From a virus: a stretch of DNA of 29,013 nucleotides. The stretch is from positions 1 through 29,013 of IMG/VR virus record IMGVR_UViG_3300042691_036113. The stretch is one strand, 5' to 3'. The first letter of the stretch is position 1; each line of letters begins with the position of its first letter. A program made the translations under genes and the position numbers. This document shows, one piece after another, positions 22,908-29,013 of this stretch. The notes under the pieces are model-generated. The model was not told the DNA's origin. It was given only the letters and a program-made list of their open reading frames with translations, and searched no databases.

Positions 22908-25463
22908 TTAAAAGGAGAAAAACTTTTTAGCAGTTTGAGCTTCCGTACTTGCTTTTTCCCACTTTAAAGCCCTATAAAAATCATCAATTTTATTCTCCAA
23001 TTCAGCTTTGTATATACCATCTCTATCCACATACTGCTCTACGAAATCCATAACCTCCTTTGGGTCATTATAATCTTTAAATGCTAATCCATCCAATCCC
23101 AATGGGTTTGTTTTAAGATATACCCATTTAACTTTATCACCATCTCTGATTGGTTCATGCTTATATGGACAATTAAAGAATTTCAGTAATCGATTGTATG
23201 CTATTCCAGCTTTTACGTGTGCCGGAGTTCCCTTATCAAAATCTGCTATGGATTTACCCTTTACCCAACTACCATTATCGTACTTACTCAATTCTTTGAT
23301 TGCCCCACCCTTTGCTATTTTATTAACAGGCAAAGTACTCATAGATTTTTTGAAATTTAATAGTGATTCATCTATTTCAGAATTAGATTTACCCATTAAG
23401 ATATCTTTCAATAACTTAGCCATAAAGTCCTGAAATGCTTTTGGAAACGATGAACGAACTACATCCAACCCCTTTACATCTAATTTATCGCAAGGGATAC
23501 CATTTTTCAAAATCATCCATTGTGCGTATCGTTTTTTTGCTACCCAAAACCCCGCCTTACTGATATACTCTTTCTTAATTTCGAATCGATGTTTATCTTT
23601 TGAGATAAAGAAGAATCTTTCTGCTAATAAATCGTAAAACTTATTTAAGAATGATTGAGTTTCTTCGGCGATAGTATTTACCTCTTCGGCCATTCGGTTT
23701 TGGTCAAACTCTTTGTAGTTTGGATAACGATGTTTTACCAATGGTTCTGCCATCATATAGATTGAATCGGTATCTATATAAACATTGTAGTCGTCTCTTG
23801 TTCCGAGTTCTTTCCAGTATTTGATGTTTGCCATTTCTGCTGTTTTTTTGATAACAGTCTGTCCGGTGATTGTAACCGCCTCTGCATTATCAATATCATA
23901 AAACCGAAAGGCAGGCAAACCAAGAACACCATACATAGAGTTAAGAAGAATCTTCTGAACCAATTGTCTTTTTGCATAAAATTCATATTTTTCTGTATCT
24001 TTTTCTTCACCATATTTCTTTTCTAACTTTCTAAACTCCACACGCTTTTGAAACCAATCATTTAGAATATCTGCAATAAGACCTGGTTTGTCTTGGTTAT
24101 ATAAAACACCATTAGCACCCACCCCTAAGTTACTATCTTTAATAACTTCTTCTAATTCTTTCCGATTGTATTCGTATGTATCCCCATCTTTGCCAACCAA
24201 ATTGTAAATCTTATCTTCACCTCTAATCCATTCTTCCGCATCCCAATTTGAAATCTTACCAACTTTGGTTTCGGGACTGATGTTTAGTGTCATAATGATT
24301 GATGGATATAGAGATGTTAAGTCCAAATCGTAAATCCAATCATACTTACCAACGATAGGTTCTTTTACATATGCTCCGATAAACTTCTCTTCATTGTTAT
24401 CTCTAAGAGCCTGCATCCTTTCTTTCCTATCCTTTGGTTTATTAGTTGCTACCAATCCTTTCTTTTTAAGATACCCCAAACATGCTCCTTCTAACCACTT
24501 TGATGAAAATATATAATCCTCATAAGGAACATAGCCAGCGTGACAAACTGCTCTACATAATTCAATAAACTGAAGTTTATTATCCATTGCTACAACCAAG
24601 TCCACGTCGACAATGTTATACTCAATGAACTTTTCCAAATCAGTTTCGAATAGGTCATCTAAATTACCTTCATACTCAACCTTACCTCTACCCAATTCTT
24701 TTGTGGCAATATAGTTCAATGTATAAGATGATTCCAATGAGTATGTATATGTCTTATATAGGTTTAGATAATCTAAAATACTCACACCACCAAATTGCCA
24801 CTTATCTCTATATGGTGAATAGAATGTTTGGCCTACTGGCGATAATCTTTTAGCATTACCTTCACCACATACATTTTTAATACGATTATAAAGGTATGGG
24901 ATATCAAAGAAGTCAATATTCCAACCTGTTAATATTGTTGGATTGATTTCTTCATAATAATTTAGAAAAGATTGTAGTAAGTTTCTTTCATTATCAAAGA
25001 TATGAATCTTTGCTTCTCTACCATCTTTATTAAACTGATTTGAATTATTTTTTATTTTACGTTCCTTATCTAAAACGAATACATCGAATAGTTTAGTTGC
25101 TCCATCATGTGCGGCAATAGCTGTAATTTCATTTTTAGCTTCCTTTGTATTTGGAAGCCCACTAATCATTTCAACCTCAATGTCAAATGTTAAAACTCTA
25201 TGTCCTTTTGATGGTAAATCTGATTCATAAATATCAACTAACACTCTCGTTGTTTCAGGCACATCCGATTCAAACAAATCTTCTGCATCATCTTTTTCCC
25301 ACTTTGATATTTTAGTTAATCTATCACCATACATTGAACGAAATTCTCCATATGGGTCTTTCTTATAGGCATACTTACGATAAGGAAATGTTGTATATCC
25401 TCTTTCATCATCCCACAAATGTATTAAATTTCTCTGCCTCTCGTAATAAATGTTTTGATACAT
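22908..25463 (-). CDS. Family B DNA polymerase with 3'-5' exonuclease (T4 gp43-like)
   Basis: 851 residues (T4 gp43 is 898). Exonuclease motifs: Exo I FDIEVE (93-98; Asp94, Glu96), Exo II GWNIDFFDIPYLYNR (180-194), Exo III EYNIVDVDLV (281-290, Tyr282 and Asp286). Polymerase motifs: A DLTSLYPSII (381-390), B KILLNSMYG (504-512), C YIDTDSIY (562-569, Asp564 and Asp566). The C-terminus ends in KKFFSF, placed and shaped like the clamp-binding tail of T4/RB69 polymerase. All catalytic residues are intact and there is no intein or split. It is the replicative polymerase, working with the clamp and loader encoded just downstream. Its ATG shares TAATG with the stop of the glycosyltransferase gene upstream. 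Confidence 0.98.
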   Translation of the reverse strand: MYQNIYYERQRNLIHLWDDERGYTTFPYRKYAYKKDPYGEFRSMYGDRLTKISKWEKDDAEDLFESDVPETTRVLVDIYESDLPSKGHRVLTFDIEVEMISGLPNTKEAKNEITAIAAHDGATKLFDVFVLDKERKIKNNSNQFNKDGREAKIHIFDNERNLLQSFLNYYEEINPTILTGWNIDFFDIPYLYNRIKNVCGEGNAKRLSPVGQTFYSPYRDKWQFGGVSILDYLNLYKTYTYSLESSYTLNYIATKELGRGKVEYEGNLDDLFETDLEKFIEYNIVDVDLVVAMDNKLQFIELCRAVCHAGYVPYEDYIFSSKWLEGACLGYLKKKGLVATNKPKDRKERMQALRDNNEEKFIGAYVKEPIVGKYDWIYDLDLTSLYPSIIMTLNISPETKVGKISNWDAEEWIRGEDKIYNLVGKDGDTYEYNRKELEEVIKDSNLGVGANGVLYNQDKPGLIADILNDWFQKRVEFRKLEKKYGEEKDTEKYEFYAKRQLVQKILLNSMYGVLGLPAFRFYDIDNAEAVTITGQTVIKKTAEMANIKYWKELGTRDDYNVYIDTDSIYMMAEPLVKHRYPNYKEFDQNRMAEEVNTIAEETQSFLNKFYDLLAERFFFISKDKHRFEIKKEYISKAGFWVAKKRYAQWMILKNGIPCDKLDVKGLDVVRSSFPKAFQDFMAKLLKDILMGKSNSEIDESLLNFKKSMSTLPVNKIAKGGAIKELSKYDNGSWVKGKSIADFDKGTPAHVKAGIAYNRLLKFFNCPYKHEPIRDGDKVKWVYLKTNPLGLDGLAFKDYNDPKEVMDFVEQYVDRDGIYKAELENKIDDFYRALKWEKASTEAQTAKKFFSF

Positions 25464-26575
25464 TAACCTATTAATTTTTCGTTTAAAACTTTAATCATTT
25501 TACTATCGTTTAGCGATAGTTCTTTTGCTCTTTCAATTGCTTTATTGGATATTTCTAATCTATGATTATCATCATCCAATATTTTATCTAACATATCAAA
25601 CAAATCCTTTTTATATTTAAAAAATAAACCATTTGGGTCTATCTCTTTGTAACAATCTGATTCCTGAAATATCATAGGAGTTCCATTCATCATACAATCG
25701 GTTGCCGCTACACTCCATCCATAATTCGTTTGCCTCATCTGAATACCTACCATACATTCTTGTAATCGTTTATAGTAGTCATGCTTAGCTACTTTGGTAT
25801 TATCAACCCAACTAAATTCTGGCTTACCATCTAATTGTGGCACCCATACTTTAAAATCTTGTCTACGTTCTCTATACTCCTCCATCAATTTAATAAAAGA
25901 TGGATATCCTTTATATGCAGCTGCTCGATGATTGAATACAATAATCTTTTCCTTTGATTTTGGTTCTTCTATAATTTTAGTATTATCTATACCCAAATTC
26001 CAAACTACTAATATACTATTTAATTTTTGAATAAACAAATCATTAAACCATAATTTTGCTTCTTCTAAAACTCTATCTTTTTGTTCTTGTGTATTTAAAA
26101 AGCAAGTATCCATTTGTGATACCCCTAACAATTCTACTGGCATCCATCTCCATTTATTTTTTCTATCTTCGGAATTACAAGATTTCATTTCCCACCAATG
26201 GCAATATCCAATAATCTTTGTTTCAAAATTATTCTTATATCTACCAACTTGTGGCCAATCGGGTAAATGCGAATAGATTACATCGTATTCTAATGTTTCT
26301 AACAACCTATTCATATCAGGCGGATACGTTCTCATTTTAATCATATCTCCTGAAAATGGTAATATATGCTGTTTTACATTAATTAGATTTAGCTTCTTAA
26401 CTGCTTGTGGTAATATGATATTCCAATAAAACTCACCATGTTCTTCCAATGCTTTTATGTGATTATAGATTACATCTACAAATGAGTCTTTCTCAATATT
26501 TCCGGAATTAGTAATGTTTGGAATAACTAAAACCTTCCTTGCTTTTTTATAATCTATTGAATCCCAAAATATCAT
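25463..26575 (-). CDS. GT-B-fold glycosyltransferase, 370 aa, upstream of the polymerase
   Basis: A GT4-like layout: N-terminal Rossmann domain with RKVLVIPNITNSG (13-25), then the donor domain with KIIVFNHRAAAYKGYPSFIKL (about 213-233), typical of the second Rossmann opening, and SVAATDCMMNGTPMIFQES (about 294-312), the conserved donor-binding segment with Asp in place of the first Glu of E-x7-E. It lies between a DUF4338 gene (1 base) and the polymerase (TAATG), away from the main glycan cluster. A role in glucosylating modified DNA, as in T-even phages, is a possibility raised by position, but protein or glycan targets are equally open. Confidence 0.78.
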   Translation of the reverse strand: MIFWDSIDYKKARKVLVIPNITNSGNIEKDSFVDVIYNHIKALEEHGEFYWNIILPQAVKKLNLINVKQHILPFSGDMIKMRTYPPDMNRLLETLEYDVIYSHLPDWPQVGRYKNNFETKIIGYCHWWEMKSCNSEDRKNKWRWMPVELLGVSQMDTCFLNTQEQKDRVLEEAKLWFNDLFIQKLNSILVVWNLGIDNTKIIEEPKSKEKIIVFNHRAAAYKGYPSFIKLMEEYRERRQDFKVWVPQLDGKPEFSWVDNTKVAKHDYYKRLQECMVGIQMRQTNYGWSVAATDCMMNGTPMIFQESDCYKEIDPNGLFFKYKKDLFDMLDKILDDDNHRLEISNKAIERAKELSLNDSKMIKVLNEKLIG

Positions 26576-26576
26576 T

Positions 26577-27806
26577 TTATCTACCTACTTCTTTTAAATA
26601 ATTTTCTTTCATACCTTCCCACGTCATTCCAATTGCATCTACATAAAATAGAACCTCTGGTTTTATTTTATTTTCATCAAACAATTTTTCATATCGTTTA
26701 ATTGCTTTATCTTTCCACCATTTAATGGTATAATCATTGCCTTGCTTAAACTTATCTTTTAGAATCAAATCCTTCTCTTCAATTTTATCACATAAGAACT
26801 GATTACCATTCTCATACATTTGTGCAAAATATACACCTCTTTGAAATCCGTGGTCATACTCATTACCTTTAATCCCCAATTCTTTGAATATTGCCTGAAT
26901 AATCTTTTGTTTGATTCCACTTACAGGTCCATTCTTTTCGTATCCCATATTAGCACCATTACGTTCTCTCTCATCCATAATGTGTTTCTTATACCAATCT
27001 GCACGATTCTCTTTTAACCATTGATGCCACGGGTCATAAACTTCATCATCTGGTTTAATACTGATTTTACCTTTAGATTCTCCCAATGTTTTGAAATGCG
27101 GAATACCATTATATTGTGAGTGAATTCCGTATAGAGATGTTGTTCCTATACCAACTAATGGATTTTCGTATTTTTGCTTCCAATAATCTCTAATTTCAGG
27201 TGCAGTTGCTAATGCTGCGATTAACTTACCACCTAAAAAGTTATATCCAAATGGTTGGGTTGATACGATGGTTGTAGCAATTGATGTACAATTCAATTTA
27301 CCTTTCTCAAACTTATCTTCTTTAGTCCAGCCAATAAACTCATCTCTAACACCCAATGATGTGATATCTGACCCTAAACAAATCTGTCCTAATATCTTTC
27401 CGCTTGTTTTATCTTTTACATAGATTTTTACATTTCTACCAGGGTTAGCTGAAAATTCCATAGTATGTATTAACTTACGAATTTCAGTCCAACGAGTAGA
27501 TTCTTTTGGGTCATCATCTACAATTTCTACATATGGTTCAATGGATTGGATTTCTTTAATAGTTAGTTCTTTATCAAATATATTAGTTGGTTTCCACAAT
27601 GAATCGTAATAAGATTGTAATACTGGCAAACGTTTCATATTAGAAACCCTATCCATATTCCACTCTATCCATTTTTTATATAGAGTTTGTTCTTGTACTG
27701 ACATTGTTTTAAGATAGTTCAAATTATCAATGAACTTCTTTTTCATTATATGATAGTCGAATGTGGCGGTATTTGTTTCTTCGCCTGTATCCCAAAATTT
27801 ATTCAT
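26577..27806 (-). CDS. DUF4338 (DruA-like) protein, 409 aa
   Basis: The centre matches the DUF4338 pattern: a strand pair with GKILGQICLGSDI (136-148), then LGVRDEFIGW (151-160), matching the family's LxxRDxWIGW, an FLGGKLIAAL segment (190-199), DYWKQKYENPLVGIGTTS (207-224) and a closing YNGIPHFKTLGESKG (232-246). DUF4338 occurs in transposon-linked genes and as DruA in Druantia defence systems; its fold is thought to be GNAT-like. Residues 1-120 and 250-409 are extensions without a recognised domain. It follows the two Mom-like genes and precedes a glycosyltransferase and the polymerase. Biochemical function unknown. First gene after promoter 27811-27842, only 4 bases before the ATG. Confidence 0.75.
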   Translation of the reverse strand: MNKFWDTGEETNTATFDYHIMKKKFIDNLNYLKTMSVQEQTLYKKWIEWNMDRVSNMKRLPVLQSYYDSLWKPTNIFDKELTIKEIQSIEPYVEIVDDDPKESTRWTEIRKLIHTMEFSANPGRNVKIYVKDKTSGKILGQICLGSDITSLGVRDEFIGWTKEDKFEKGKLNCTSIATTIVSTQPFGYNFLGGKLIAALATAPEIRDYWKQKYENPLVGIGTTSLYGIHSQYNGIPHFKTLGESKGKISIKPDDEVYDPWHQWLKENRADWYKKHIMDERERNGANMGYEKNGPVSGIKQKIIQAIFKELGIKGNEYDHGFQRGVYFAQMYENGNQFLCDKIEEKDLILKDKFKQGNDYTIKWWKDKAIKRYEKLFDENKIKPEVLFYVDAIGMTWEGMKENYLKEVGR

Positions 27807-27810
27807 ATTG

Positions 27811-27842
27811 TAAATATACTAAAAATAATTCAGATTACCAAA
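27811..27842 (-). promoter_or_regulatory. Promoter abutting the DUF4338 gene start
   Basis: Minus strand: TTTG (27842-27839, inside the end of the Mom-like gene), 20 bases, TATATTTA (27818-27811), 4 bases (CAAT), then ATG at 27806. The start site should fall on or next to the ATG, giving a leaderless transcript, as at 19862-19893. Confidence 0.68.
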
Positions 27843-28638
27843 ATTTGGTATCTATTTCCGTTTCAGGTGCGATTGTTTCCCAATGTTGAATATCCTTATT
27901 ATACGCACGGGCATCCTTTGGATAAGGTCTGATTTCGTGTTTGAAGGATTTCATAATTGCTTTCTTTTCCTTCTTATCAGCTGTAATGATTTGTAAATAT
28001 CTATGCTTTGGTGGTTCTTCCCTTCTCCAAAACTCTTTATATCCTTGCTTTCCAATTTCTCTACGAAGATGTTCTAAGTTACCACTACCCCATTTTGTAA
28101 ACACAGTCCGACTATGAATCCATTTGTATGGATTATTTGAAAGTGAAATACCATAGTTTGGCATTAGAGCGATATCGGTATTTAATCCCTGATAAATCCA
28201 ATTTGTTGCTTGGTAAATACCACCTAAGTGTTCTTGCCCATTATCTGCATAAGAAATAAGTGCTTTGATTGCCTGGTCATTCTCTCTGAACCATTTGAAT
28301 GATTGTCCCATAGCATACGATTCGATATTAGAACCATATCCATCATCACAATAAAGACGGGTAAGTTCTAATACATTATCTTTTGTAAGTAAATCCGAAA
28401 TGGAAGTTGCTGCTCTTGCTCCAACGGGAAATCCGTAAACTAAACACCCAATCAATTTGGTATCTTCACCCAATGCATTGGTTTCATCCATTTTATAGAA
28501 TATTCCTAATGCATATCTACACGCAGTCCAAGCGTGAGTATAGTGTTTCTTTACGATGATATCTTTTGCTACATCTTTACCGATTGGTGCTATAAATACT
28601 TTTGATGTATCGCAGTAGTTTTTACCTTCTACTTTCAT
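27835..28638 (-). CDS. Mom-like GNAT-fold protein (putative DNA-modification enzyme), 267 aa
   Basis: Resembles the phage Mu Mom family, which converts adenine in DNA to a carbamoylmethyl-type derivative and protects phage DNA from restriction. Seen in order: HYTH (32-35), GCLVYGFPVG (64-73), ELTRLYCDD (91-99), SNIESY (103-108), SYADNGQEHLGGIYQATNWIYQG (129-151, cited in two parts: SYADNG and HLGGIYQATNWIYQG) and a C-terminal PPKHRYLQI with RPYPK. These match the Mom pattern ELnRl..., YAD... and GtiYqA.n. It shares the YAD/GIYQATNWIYQG and KHRY segments with the gene just upstream (28643-29013). Donor, base and product are unknown. Cellular role inferred from family. Confidence 0.75.
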   Translation of the reverse strand: MKVEGKNYCDTSKVFIAPIGKDVAKDIIVKKHYTHAWTACRYALGIFYKMDETNALGEDTKLIGCLVYGFPVGARAATSISDLLTKDNVLELTRLYCDDGYGSNIESYAMGQSFKWFRENDQAIKALISYADNGQEHLGGIYQATNWIYQGLNTDIALMPNYGISLSNNPYKWIHSRTVFTKWGSGNLEHLRREIGKQGYKEFWRREEPPKHRYLQIITADKKEKKAIMKSFKHEIRPYPKDARAYNKDIQHWETIAPETEIDTKFW

Positions 28639-28642
28639 AACC

Positions 28643-29013
28643 TTAATTTATTGGTTCTAATTTATGGATTTCTTCTACAAATTCCTCACTTACTTTTGGG
28701 TATGGTAATGATGGATATTTTAGATTTTTTAATAATTGCTTTCTTTCTTTTCCGTTAACCAAAATGTAAACATAACGATGTTTTCTCGGTTCTTTTTTAA
28801 TCCAAAATGGCGATGTTACCATTGTCTGAATTATCTTCGGGTCATTCGTTCCATACTTTACATATGAAGTTCTACTATGATGCCACTCATCAATTTCACT
28901 CCATTTAAAACTCCAACTGTCATTTGGTCGGATTCGGTTACCCTGATATATCCAATTCGTTGCCTGATATACAGTTCCTAAATGTCCTGCTTTTGGGTCT
29001 GAATAGGATACCA
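28643..29013 (-). CDS. Mom-like GNAT-fold protein, partial (5' end beyond window)
   Basis: Reading in from the edge gives 123 residues ending at the stop at 28643-28645; the N-terminal half is outside. It opens with VSYSDPKAGHLGTVYQATNW and then IYQG, the same motif as the next gene downstream (SYADNG...GIYQATNWIYQG), and later has RTSYVKYG, PFWIKKEPRKHRYVYIL and YPSLPYPK, matching PPKHRYLQI and RPYPK there. The two genes are thus diverged paralogues, 4 bases apart. The putative active Asp of YSD is kept. The function proposed is the same as for its neighbour. The missing N-terminus prevents checking for the HY..H and ELxRL parts. Confidence 0.72.
   Translation of the reverse strand, partial: VSYSDPKAGHLGTVYQATNWIYQGNRIRPNDSWSFKWSEIDEWHHSRTSYVKYGTNDPKIIQTMVTSPFWIKKEPRKHRYVYILVNGKERKQLLKNLKYPSLPYPKVSEEFVEEIHKLEPIN

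What the first reader, a model, noticed from the sequence alone, without database searches (positions are those of the whole stretch)
26577..29013. Tandem Mom-like paralogues followed by a DUF4338 gene: a candidate DNA base-modification module next to the polymerase
Two adjacent Mom-like genes share SY(A/S)D and the TNWIYQG ending, and a DruA-like DUF4338 gene follows. Both families are thought to be GNAT-like, and the block leads directly into a glycosyltransferase and the replicative polymerase. Two different Mom-like enzymes plus DUF4338 in a T4-like phage would be an unusual combination; they could act in succession on one base or on different ones. The modification chemistry is not known from sequence.
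Basis: partly seen in the sequence, partly recalled or inferred. Interest (0 to 1): 0.75.

Follow-up and report, generated by a model that had tools for sequence, protein, structure and literature searches.

The report
Twin Mom genes beside phage polymerase
A T4-like phage family carries, right next to its DNA polymerase gene, two intact copies of the Mom family (enzymes that chemically disguise phage DNA from bacterial defences) and a relative of DruA, a part of the bacterial anti-phage system Druantia, which makes it a good place to ask whether DruA also modifies DNA.

Summary
On the minus strand lie the last 122 codons of one Mom gene (28643-29011, cut by the contig end), a complete second Mom (27835-28638), a DruA/DUF4338 gene (26577-27806), a glycosyltransferase-like gene and PolB. 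It is not a one-off: the same genes recur in dozens of IMG/VR contigs of related T4-like phages. MomA and MomB are old paralogues, each one clade, under purifying selection. In 51 MomA and 70 MomB sequences the Mom active-site columns are invariant except for D134N in two MomB, so both are probably working DNA acyltransferases. Twenty fixed A/B differences, some beside the active site, suggest different targets. The third gene is a full-length relative of DruA from a real Druantia type I operon. Its model is GNAT-like and Mu Mom is its best PDB match, but it lacks Mom's H-Y and D residues. Mobile bacterial DruA proteins do share Mom's motifs (profile E 1.5e-9), which links the two families. 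Phages with many Moms are known and DUF4338 was already called GNAT, so this is a new variant of a known kind. New here: the replisome setting, the DruA-Mom link, and a neighbouring slot holding varied nuclease-like genes.

The parts
28643..29011 (-). MomA, C-terminal 122 aa of a Mom-family DNA acyltransferase, cut by the contig end
   Evidence: Pfam Mom E 7.2e-16, profile 107-202; complete 251-aa homologues at the same place, e.g. L004:6409-7164
27835..28638 (-). MomB, complete Mom-family DNA acyltransferase, 267 aa
   Evidence: Pfam Mom E 2.3e-41; Mu Mom 8bv8 is the only PDB hit of the MomA+B profile, E 1.8e-13; active-site columns invariant except D134N in 2 of 70 MomB
26577..27806 (-). DruA-like protein (PF14236, ex DUF4338), 409 aa, GNAT-like core about residues 85-355
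   Evidence: Pfam DruA E 2.1e-20; PADLOC DruA 1.8e-22; BLASTP to a Druantia operon DruA E 7e-18; model pLDDT 83.7, best PDB match Mu Mom Z 10.8
25463..26575 (-). glycosyltransferase-like gene (GT-B type); conserved neighbour, role in the module not shown
   Evidence: Pfam Glycos_transf_1 E 9.1e-5 and Glyco_transf_4 3.6e-4, below cut-off; recurs next to druA or polB in most relatives
22908..25463 (-). family B replicative DNA polymerase (gp43-like), context
   Evidence: Pfam DNA_pol_B E 1.6e-35; nearest isolate Microcystis phage Mel-JY01, 49% identity

Best explanation
This is a DNA-protection module built into the replication gene cluster of a T4-like phage family. MomA and MomB are two working Mom-type GNAT enzymes that attach an acyl-CoA-derived group to a base of new phage DNA (in phage Mu, a carbamoylmethyl group on adenine N6), most likely at different sequence contexts, so that more host restriction enzymes are blocked. 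The DruA-like protein is a third GNAT-fold protein, of the Druantia-DruA type. Placed among replisome genes, it most likely also acts on new DNA, as a modifying or DNA-marking enzyme with its own active site. Shown here: gene identity, fold relation, intact Mom active sites, purifying selection, conserved synteny. Inferred: catalytic activity, adenine as target, different specificities, and the DNA-directed role of DruA.
For: Families. Folds: the MomA model matches Mu Mom at Z 20.9 over 193 of 222 residues, next entry 12.4; the DruA model's best match is also Mu Mom, Z 10.8, next 9.5. Active site: H, Y, E, R, N, E, S, S, Y, D, H, Y, N columns are invariant in 51 MomA, 70 MomB and 9 MomC except two MomB with D134N. 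The invariant Ser of N-x-E-S aligns with an Ala in the chain of the Mu Mom 'inactive mutant S124A'. Two functional genes: median dN/dS 0.11 (A), 0.12 (B), 0.15 (DruA); A and B are separate clades (99/98 and 100/95) with 20 fixed differences, including S34T beside H-Y and S133A/P135N beside the Asp. Synteny: 52 of 52 MomB loci with 7.9 kb downstream hold DruA; 44 of 53 with upstream DNA hold MomA. DruA-Mom link: IS-type DruA profile against Mom profile 96%, E 1.5e-9, with H-Y and (E/D)..G..Y.A.NW..G.T shared; best of 100 column shuffles E 0.005. Window-type DruA against IS-type DruA E 1.3e-13.
Against: No chemistry can be measured here. T4-type DruA has lost Mom's H-Y and Asp, so it cannot be assumed to do Mom chemistry or to act on DNA. 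DruA occurs without Mom in cyanophages and pelagiphages, and in some relatives Mom and DruA lie about 20 kb apart, so they need not be one pathway. All the Mom-DruA synteny comes from one broad phage lineage, so the loci are not independent. Direct profile comparison of T4-type DruA with Mom is not significant; the link goes through IS-type DruA and through the fold.
Confidence: 0.58

Rival explanations
1. MomA and MomB modify DNA, but DruA does not: it acylates a replisome or host protein, and its place among replication genes reflects that.
For: DruA sits between the clamp-loader genes gp44 and gp62 in several cyanophages, and most DruA-bearing isolates have no Mom. Most GNATs acylate proteins or small molecules (general knowledge). 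T4-type DruA lacks Mom's H-Y/D.
Against: The best structural match is the DNA-modifying Mom rather than a protein acetyltransferase, although by only about 1.3 Z units. Its IS-type relatives carry Mom's own motif.
Confidence: 0.2
2. The phage DruA is a counter-defence or superinfection protein: a Druantia DruA taken over as a decoy, or used to tag DNA so that Druantia-like systems spare it.
For: Full-length homology to DruA of a true Druantia type I operon. Phage-encoded DruA-like proteins were noted independently in PMC12774648.
Against: The gene is old and conserved in the replication cluster of several phage groups, under purifying selection, which fits a core function better than a recent decoy. 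What DruA does in Druantia is unknown.
Confidence: 0.17
3. The two Moms act in succession on one base, MomA laying a group that MomB extends or changes, perhaps capped by the glycosyltransferase.
For: Tandem, co-directed genes and a conserved glycosyltransferase neighbour.
Against: Both keep the same full active site. Some relatives have MomB without MomA. The thymidylate synthases found keep the dUMP-type LPFNIASY motif, so there is no sign of a T4-like hydroxymethylcytosine route for the glycosyltransferase.
Confidence: 0.1

Closest known systems
Phage Mu Mom (PDB 8bv8)
   Same: MomA and MomB: same family, same fold (Z 20.9), same active-site residues including the Ser whose mutation gives the inactive S124A form.
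   Different: Two tandem copies, about 24% identical to Mu Mom, in a T4-like replication cluster instead of a single gene of a transposing phage; specificity unknown.
Multi-Mom jumbo phages such as vB_PaeM_PA5oct (PMC7824862)
   Same: Several momylating enzymes in one phage, read there as a way past several restriction systems.
   Different: There the jumbo-phage Moms are typically fused to nucleases. Here they are free-standing, paired with DruA and next to polB; in some relatives nuclease-like genes sit in a neighbouring slot.
Druantia type I DruA
   Same: Window DruA aligns over 300 residues with DruA of an operon holding DruD1 and DruE1 (22% identity, E 7e-18); the T4-type and Druantia-type proteins share GGKL and TT..YG..S.Y.
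   Different: No Druantia partner genes; the gene sits among phage replication genes.
Cyanophage and pelagiphage DruA-like genes (S-PRM1, S-SM2, HTVC008M, Mosig)
   Same: Same DruA subfamily and also in T4-like replication gene clusters.
   Different: Mostly without Mom (8 of 9 records), and in several between gp44 and gp62 instead of before polB.

Membership tests
Mom (PF25680) | Profile match above the curated cut-off | tested here: met
   MomB 142 bits, MomA fragment 58.9 bits, cut-off 27.1
Mom (PF25680) | GNAT fold closest to Mu Mom | tested here: met
   Full-length MomA homologue (L085) model: 8bv8_A Z 20.9, 193 residues, rmsd 3.2
Mom (PF25680) | Conserved Mom active-site residues | tested here: met
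   H-Y, E-x-x-R, N-x-E-S, S-Y-x-D, H-x-G, Y, N invariant except D134N in 2 of 70 MomB; aligned to Mu Mom
Mom (PF25680) | Binds acetyl-CoA and iron; makes carbamoylmethyl-adenine in DNA (own knowledge of the literature on Mu Mom) | not testable with these tools
   needs biochemistry or mass spectrometry
DruA (PF14236) | Profile match above the curated cut-off | tested here: met
   73.5 bits, cut-off 27; PADLOC DruA 78 bits
DruA (PF14236) | Full-length similarity to DruA of a verified Druantia operon | tested here: met
   BLASTP E 7e-18 and profile E 4.8e-18 to L319 DruA
Druantia defence system | Partner genes (DruB-DruE) beside druA | tested here: not met
   Neighbours are Mom, glycosyltransferase, PolB and other replication genes; no gene of DruE size in the window or in the relatives' flanks shown
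Mom-type chemistry in the window DruA | H-Y pair and Asp of the Mom active site | tested here: not met
   H-Y not kept and the acidic position is Leu in 15 of 15 T4-type DruA; Thr and one Tyr kept
T4-like glucosyl-hydroxymethylcytosine pathway | dCMP hydroxymethylase (thymidylate-synthase relative that prefers dCMP) | tested here: inconclusive
   4 of 11 related contigs have a TS homologue, all with LPFNIASY (dUMP-type Asn; reading from own knowledge); contigs may be incomplete

The most novel reading that the evidence does not exclude
DruA proteins, in phages and in Druantia, are a second family of DNA-modifying acyltransferases descended from the same stock as Mom. The phage uses one, coupled to its replisome, to mark its own DNA with a group different from Mom's, and Druantia uses the same kind of marking to tell self from non-self.
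Probability: 0.22. Interest if true: 0.8.

Novelty: new variant of a known kind. Interest (0 to 1): 0.52.

Why it matters
What DruA does in the Druantia system is not known to me and no paper in the library searched explains it. A demonstrable sequence link between mobile bacterial DruA proteins and Mom, together with a phage lineage that keeps DruA and two Moms among its replication genes, turns this into a simple test: look for a modified base that depends on DruA. For phage biology, it shows that paired Moms with intact active sites and diverged surroundings are a stable, widespread solution in T4-like phages, probably to defeat several restriction systems at once. Relatives offer a natural series to test this: MomA plus MomB, MomB only, a third Mom, DruA only.

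Tried and rejected
Window-type DruA against Mom by direct profile comparison: not significant, so the link is made through IS-type DruA and through the fold. PDB sequence search with DruA: nothing of note. Foldseek alone on the DruA model gave only weak GNAT hits (best E 1.9e-3); Mu Mom came first only in the realignment. Glycosyltransferase as part of a T4-like hydroxymethylcytosine pathway: no support. Decay of one Mom copy: rejected by dN/dS and intact active sites. Chance likeness of IS-type DruA and Mom: 100 column shuffles (best E 0.005) and other gene families of the loci give nothing comparable. Literature with DUF4338 and Mom together: no paper in the library; the main Mu Mom mechanism paper is not held. 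Pfam searches with wrong coordinates failed and were repeated.

Full report
CHECKING THE OBSERVATION. Pfam assigns Mom to 27835-28638 (E 2.3e-41) and to 28643-29011 (E 7.2e-16), and DruA, the current name of DUF4338, to 26577-27806 (E 2.1e-20), all far above the curated cut-offs; PHROGs agrees. The upstream Mom is only its C-terminal 122 residues, because the contig ends inside the gene. A closely similar neighbourhood in L004 shows the whole protein, 251 aa. Gaps between the genes are 4, 28 and 1 bp, and the glycosyltransferase-like gene overlaps polB by one base, so the set is laid out like one transcription unit. The shared TNWIYQG is an internal motif, not the end of the proteins.

HOW WIDESPREAD. 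Searches of IMG/VR with the DruA and MomB proteins brought in about 160 loci, some of them two views of one contig. Among MomB loci with at least 7.9 kb held downstream, 52 of 52 carry DruA. Among those with at least 2.5 kb upstream, 44 of 53 carry MomA. Of 50 DruA loci with upstream DNA, 38 carry a Mom in the locus. On 16 larger contigs with DruA, 15 have Mom: twelve have two copies, two have three, one has one. In two of these, G005 and G006, the Moms lie about 20 kb from DruA. The usual order is momA-momB-druA-glycosyltransferase-polB, with rearrangements. The nearest isolate by PolB, Microcystis phage Mel-JY01 (49%), has neither gene.

THE TWO MOMS. The profile of MomA and MomB finds one chain in the whole PDB: Mu Mom, 8bv8 (E 1.8e-13). 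The AlphaFold model of a complete MomA (from L085, pLDDT 85) matches it at Z 20.9 over 193 residues, far above the next GNAT at 12.4. In 51 MomA, 70 MomB and 9 MomC sequences the H-Y, E-x-x-R, N-x-E-S, S-Y-x-D, H-x-G, Y and N positions are invariant, apart from two MomB with D134N. The invariant Ser of N-x-E-S aligns with an Ala in the 8bv8 chain, whose title names an inactive S124A mutant; the entry's own numbering runs to 241 while the chain has 232 residues, so that Ala should be residue 124 (the numbering step is inference). MomA and MomB form two separate clades (99/98 and 100/95), so the duplication is older than the whole set. Both are under purifying selection (median dN/dS 0.11 and 0.12). 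Twenty positions are fixed differently in A and B, several next to the active site: S34T beside H-Y, S133A and P135N beside the Asp. The simplest reading is two active enzymes with different targets.

THE DRUA GENE. Three lines of evidence place it. First, family: it matches PADLOC DruA and aligns over 300 residues with DruA from an operon that also holds DruD1 and DruE1, i.e. a true Druantia type I system (22% identity, E 7e-18; profile E 4.8e-18). Second, fold: the model is good (pLDDT 83.7), the leading matches are nearly all GNAT-fold acyltransferases, and after realignment the best is Mu Mom, Z 10.8, over 177 of 222 residues; the margin over other GNATs (9.5) is small. Third, a bridge: DruA proteins of bacterial mobile elements and a short phage DruA carry an invariant H-Y and the motif ETFV(E/D/Q)...G..Y.A.NW..G.T, the same layout as Mom's H-Y and SYAD...G..YQATNW..G.T. 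Their profile matches the Mom profile at 96%, E 1.5e-9. Column-shuffled controls reach only 0.005 and other gene families give nothing. The window-type DruA matches the IS-type at E 1.3e-13, but has not kept H-Y, and the acidic residue is Leu in 15 of 15; it keeps the Thr and one Tyr and has its own conserved TT..YG..S.Y, shared with Druantia DruA. So DruA and Mom are related, but the window DruA should not be assumed to do Mom chemistry.

PLACE IN OTHER T4-LIKE PHAGES. In cyanophages S-SM2, S-CREM1, S-SSM6a and S-SCSM2R the DruA gene lies between the two clamp-loader genes (gp44 and gp62); in S-PRM1 it follows the clamp-loader gene. In pelagiphages it is within about 7 kb of UvsW, the recombination endonuclease genes and the clamp. 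Only one of nine such records has a Mom. The annotators of S-SCSM2R named their DruA 'methylcarbamoylase mom'. DruA is thus a recurring replication-cluster gene that can do without Mom.

VARIABLE SLOT. In 46 of 117 loci (some of them the same contig fetched twice) a gene of 90 codons or more stands between momB and druA, the glycosyltransferase or polB; in the window the slot is empty. The inserted proteins differ greatly, but several have nuclease signatures: GmrSD_N (DUF262) with HNH in L155 (6.7e-8 and 9.3e-11), GmrSD_N in L135 and L152, ParB-like in L113 (3.5e-9), and a homing-endonuclease match in L107. Others show DGQ(H/T)R or nuclease-like motifs by eye only. Mom next to ParB-like genes also occurs in Microbacterium phages and a Lactobacillus plasmid. 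These may be restriction partners that spare modified DNA, or homing endonucleases; not resolved here.

WHAT IS KNOWN. Multiple Moms in one phage, and Mom as a way past several restriction systems, are described (PMC7824862). DUF4338 was called a GNAT domain (PMC10853773). DruA-like proteins in Synechococcus phages were noted by structure (PMC12774648). No paper in the library joins DUF4338 and Mom.

VERDICT. A real, conserved, very probably functional pair of Mom enzymes with a Druantia-type DruA beside the polymerase. The Mom part is known in kind. The DruA-Mom relationship and the replisome setting are the points worth following.

Noticed in passing
L155:8957-10525, L092:8988-10508, L113:8855-10018, L127:2578-3897, L107:8551-9939, L134:3430-5271: A slot between momB and druA, the glycosyltransferase or polB holds very different, often nuclease-like genes in 46 of 117 loci (GmrSD_N+HNH, ParB-like, homing-endonuclease-like, unknown 600-aa proteins); possible restriction partners or homing genes.
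   Followed up: partly
L317:3284-7400 and L318:2894-7000: DruA followed in both genomes by a gene of about 395 aa and one of about 570 aa (HerA/mads_8-like in L317), with no Druantia partners seen: a possible separate DruA-HerA system.
   Followed up: no
L251 and genome G017 (Candidatus Accumulibacter ACC003): 83 DruA-family matches in one genome; many copies share an identical stretch of about 1.5 kb (4360-5907 of L251), so this DruA rides on a mobile element.
   Followed up: partly
L058:6645-7256, L072:6640-7251, L113:4043-4648, L115:4018-4647, L117:2786-3424: A third, shorter Mom (about 203 aa, MomC) in some relatives, with the same active-site residues.
   Followed up: partly
L107, L109:7274-8026, L114:7273-8001: A short DruA-like protein (242-251 aa) with Mom-like H-Y and NW motifs stands where momA would be.
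   Followed up: partly
L144:14406-15420: DruA is split into two open frames (182 and 123 aa): frameshift, insertion or sequencing error.
   Followed up: no
L047:624-2826: Two genes that look by eye like a phosphate porin and a PstS-type binding protein, inserted near the module; the signal-peptide style suggests a Bacteroidota host.
   Followed up: no
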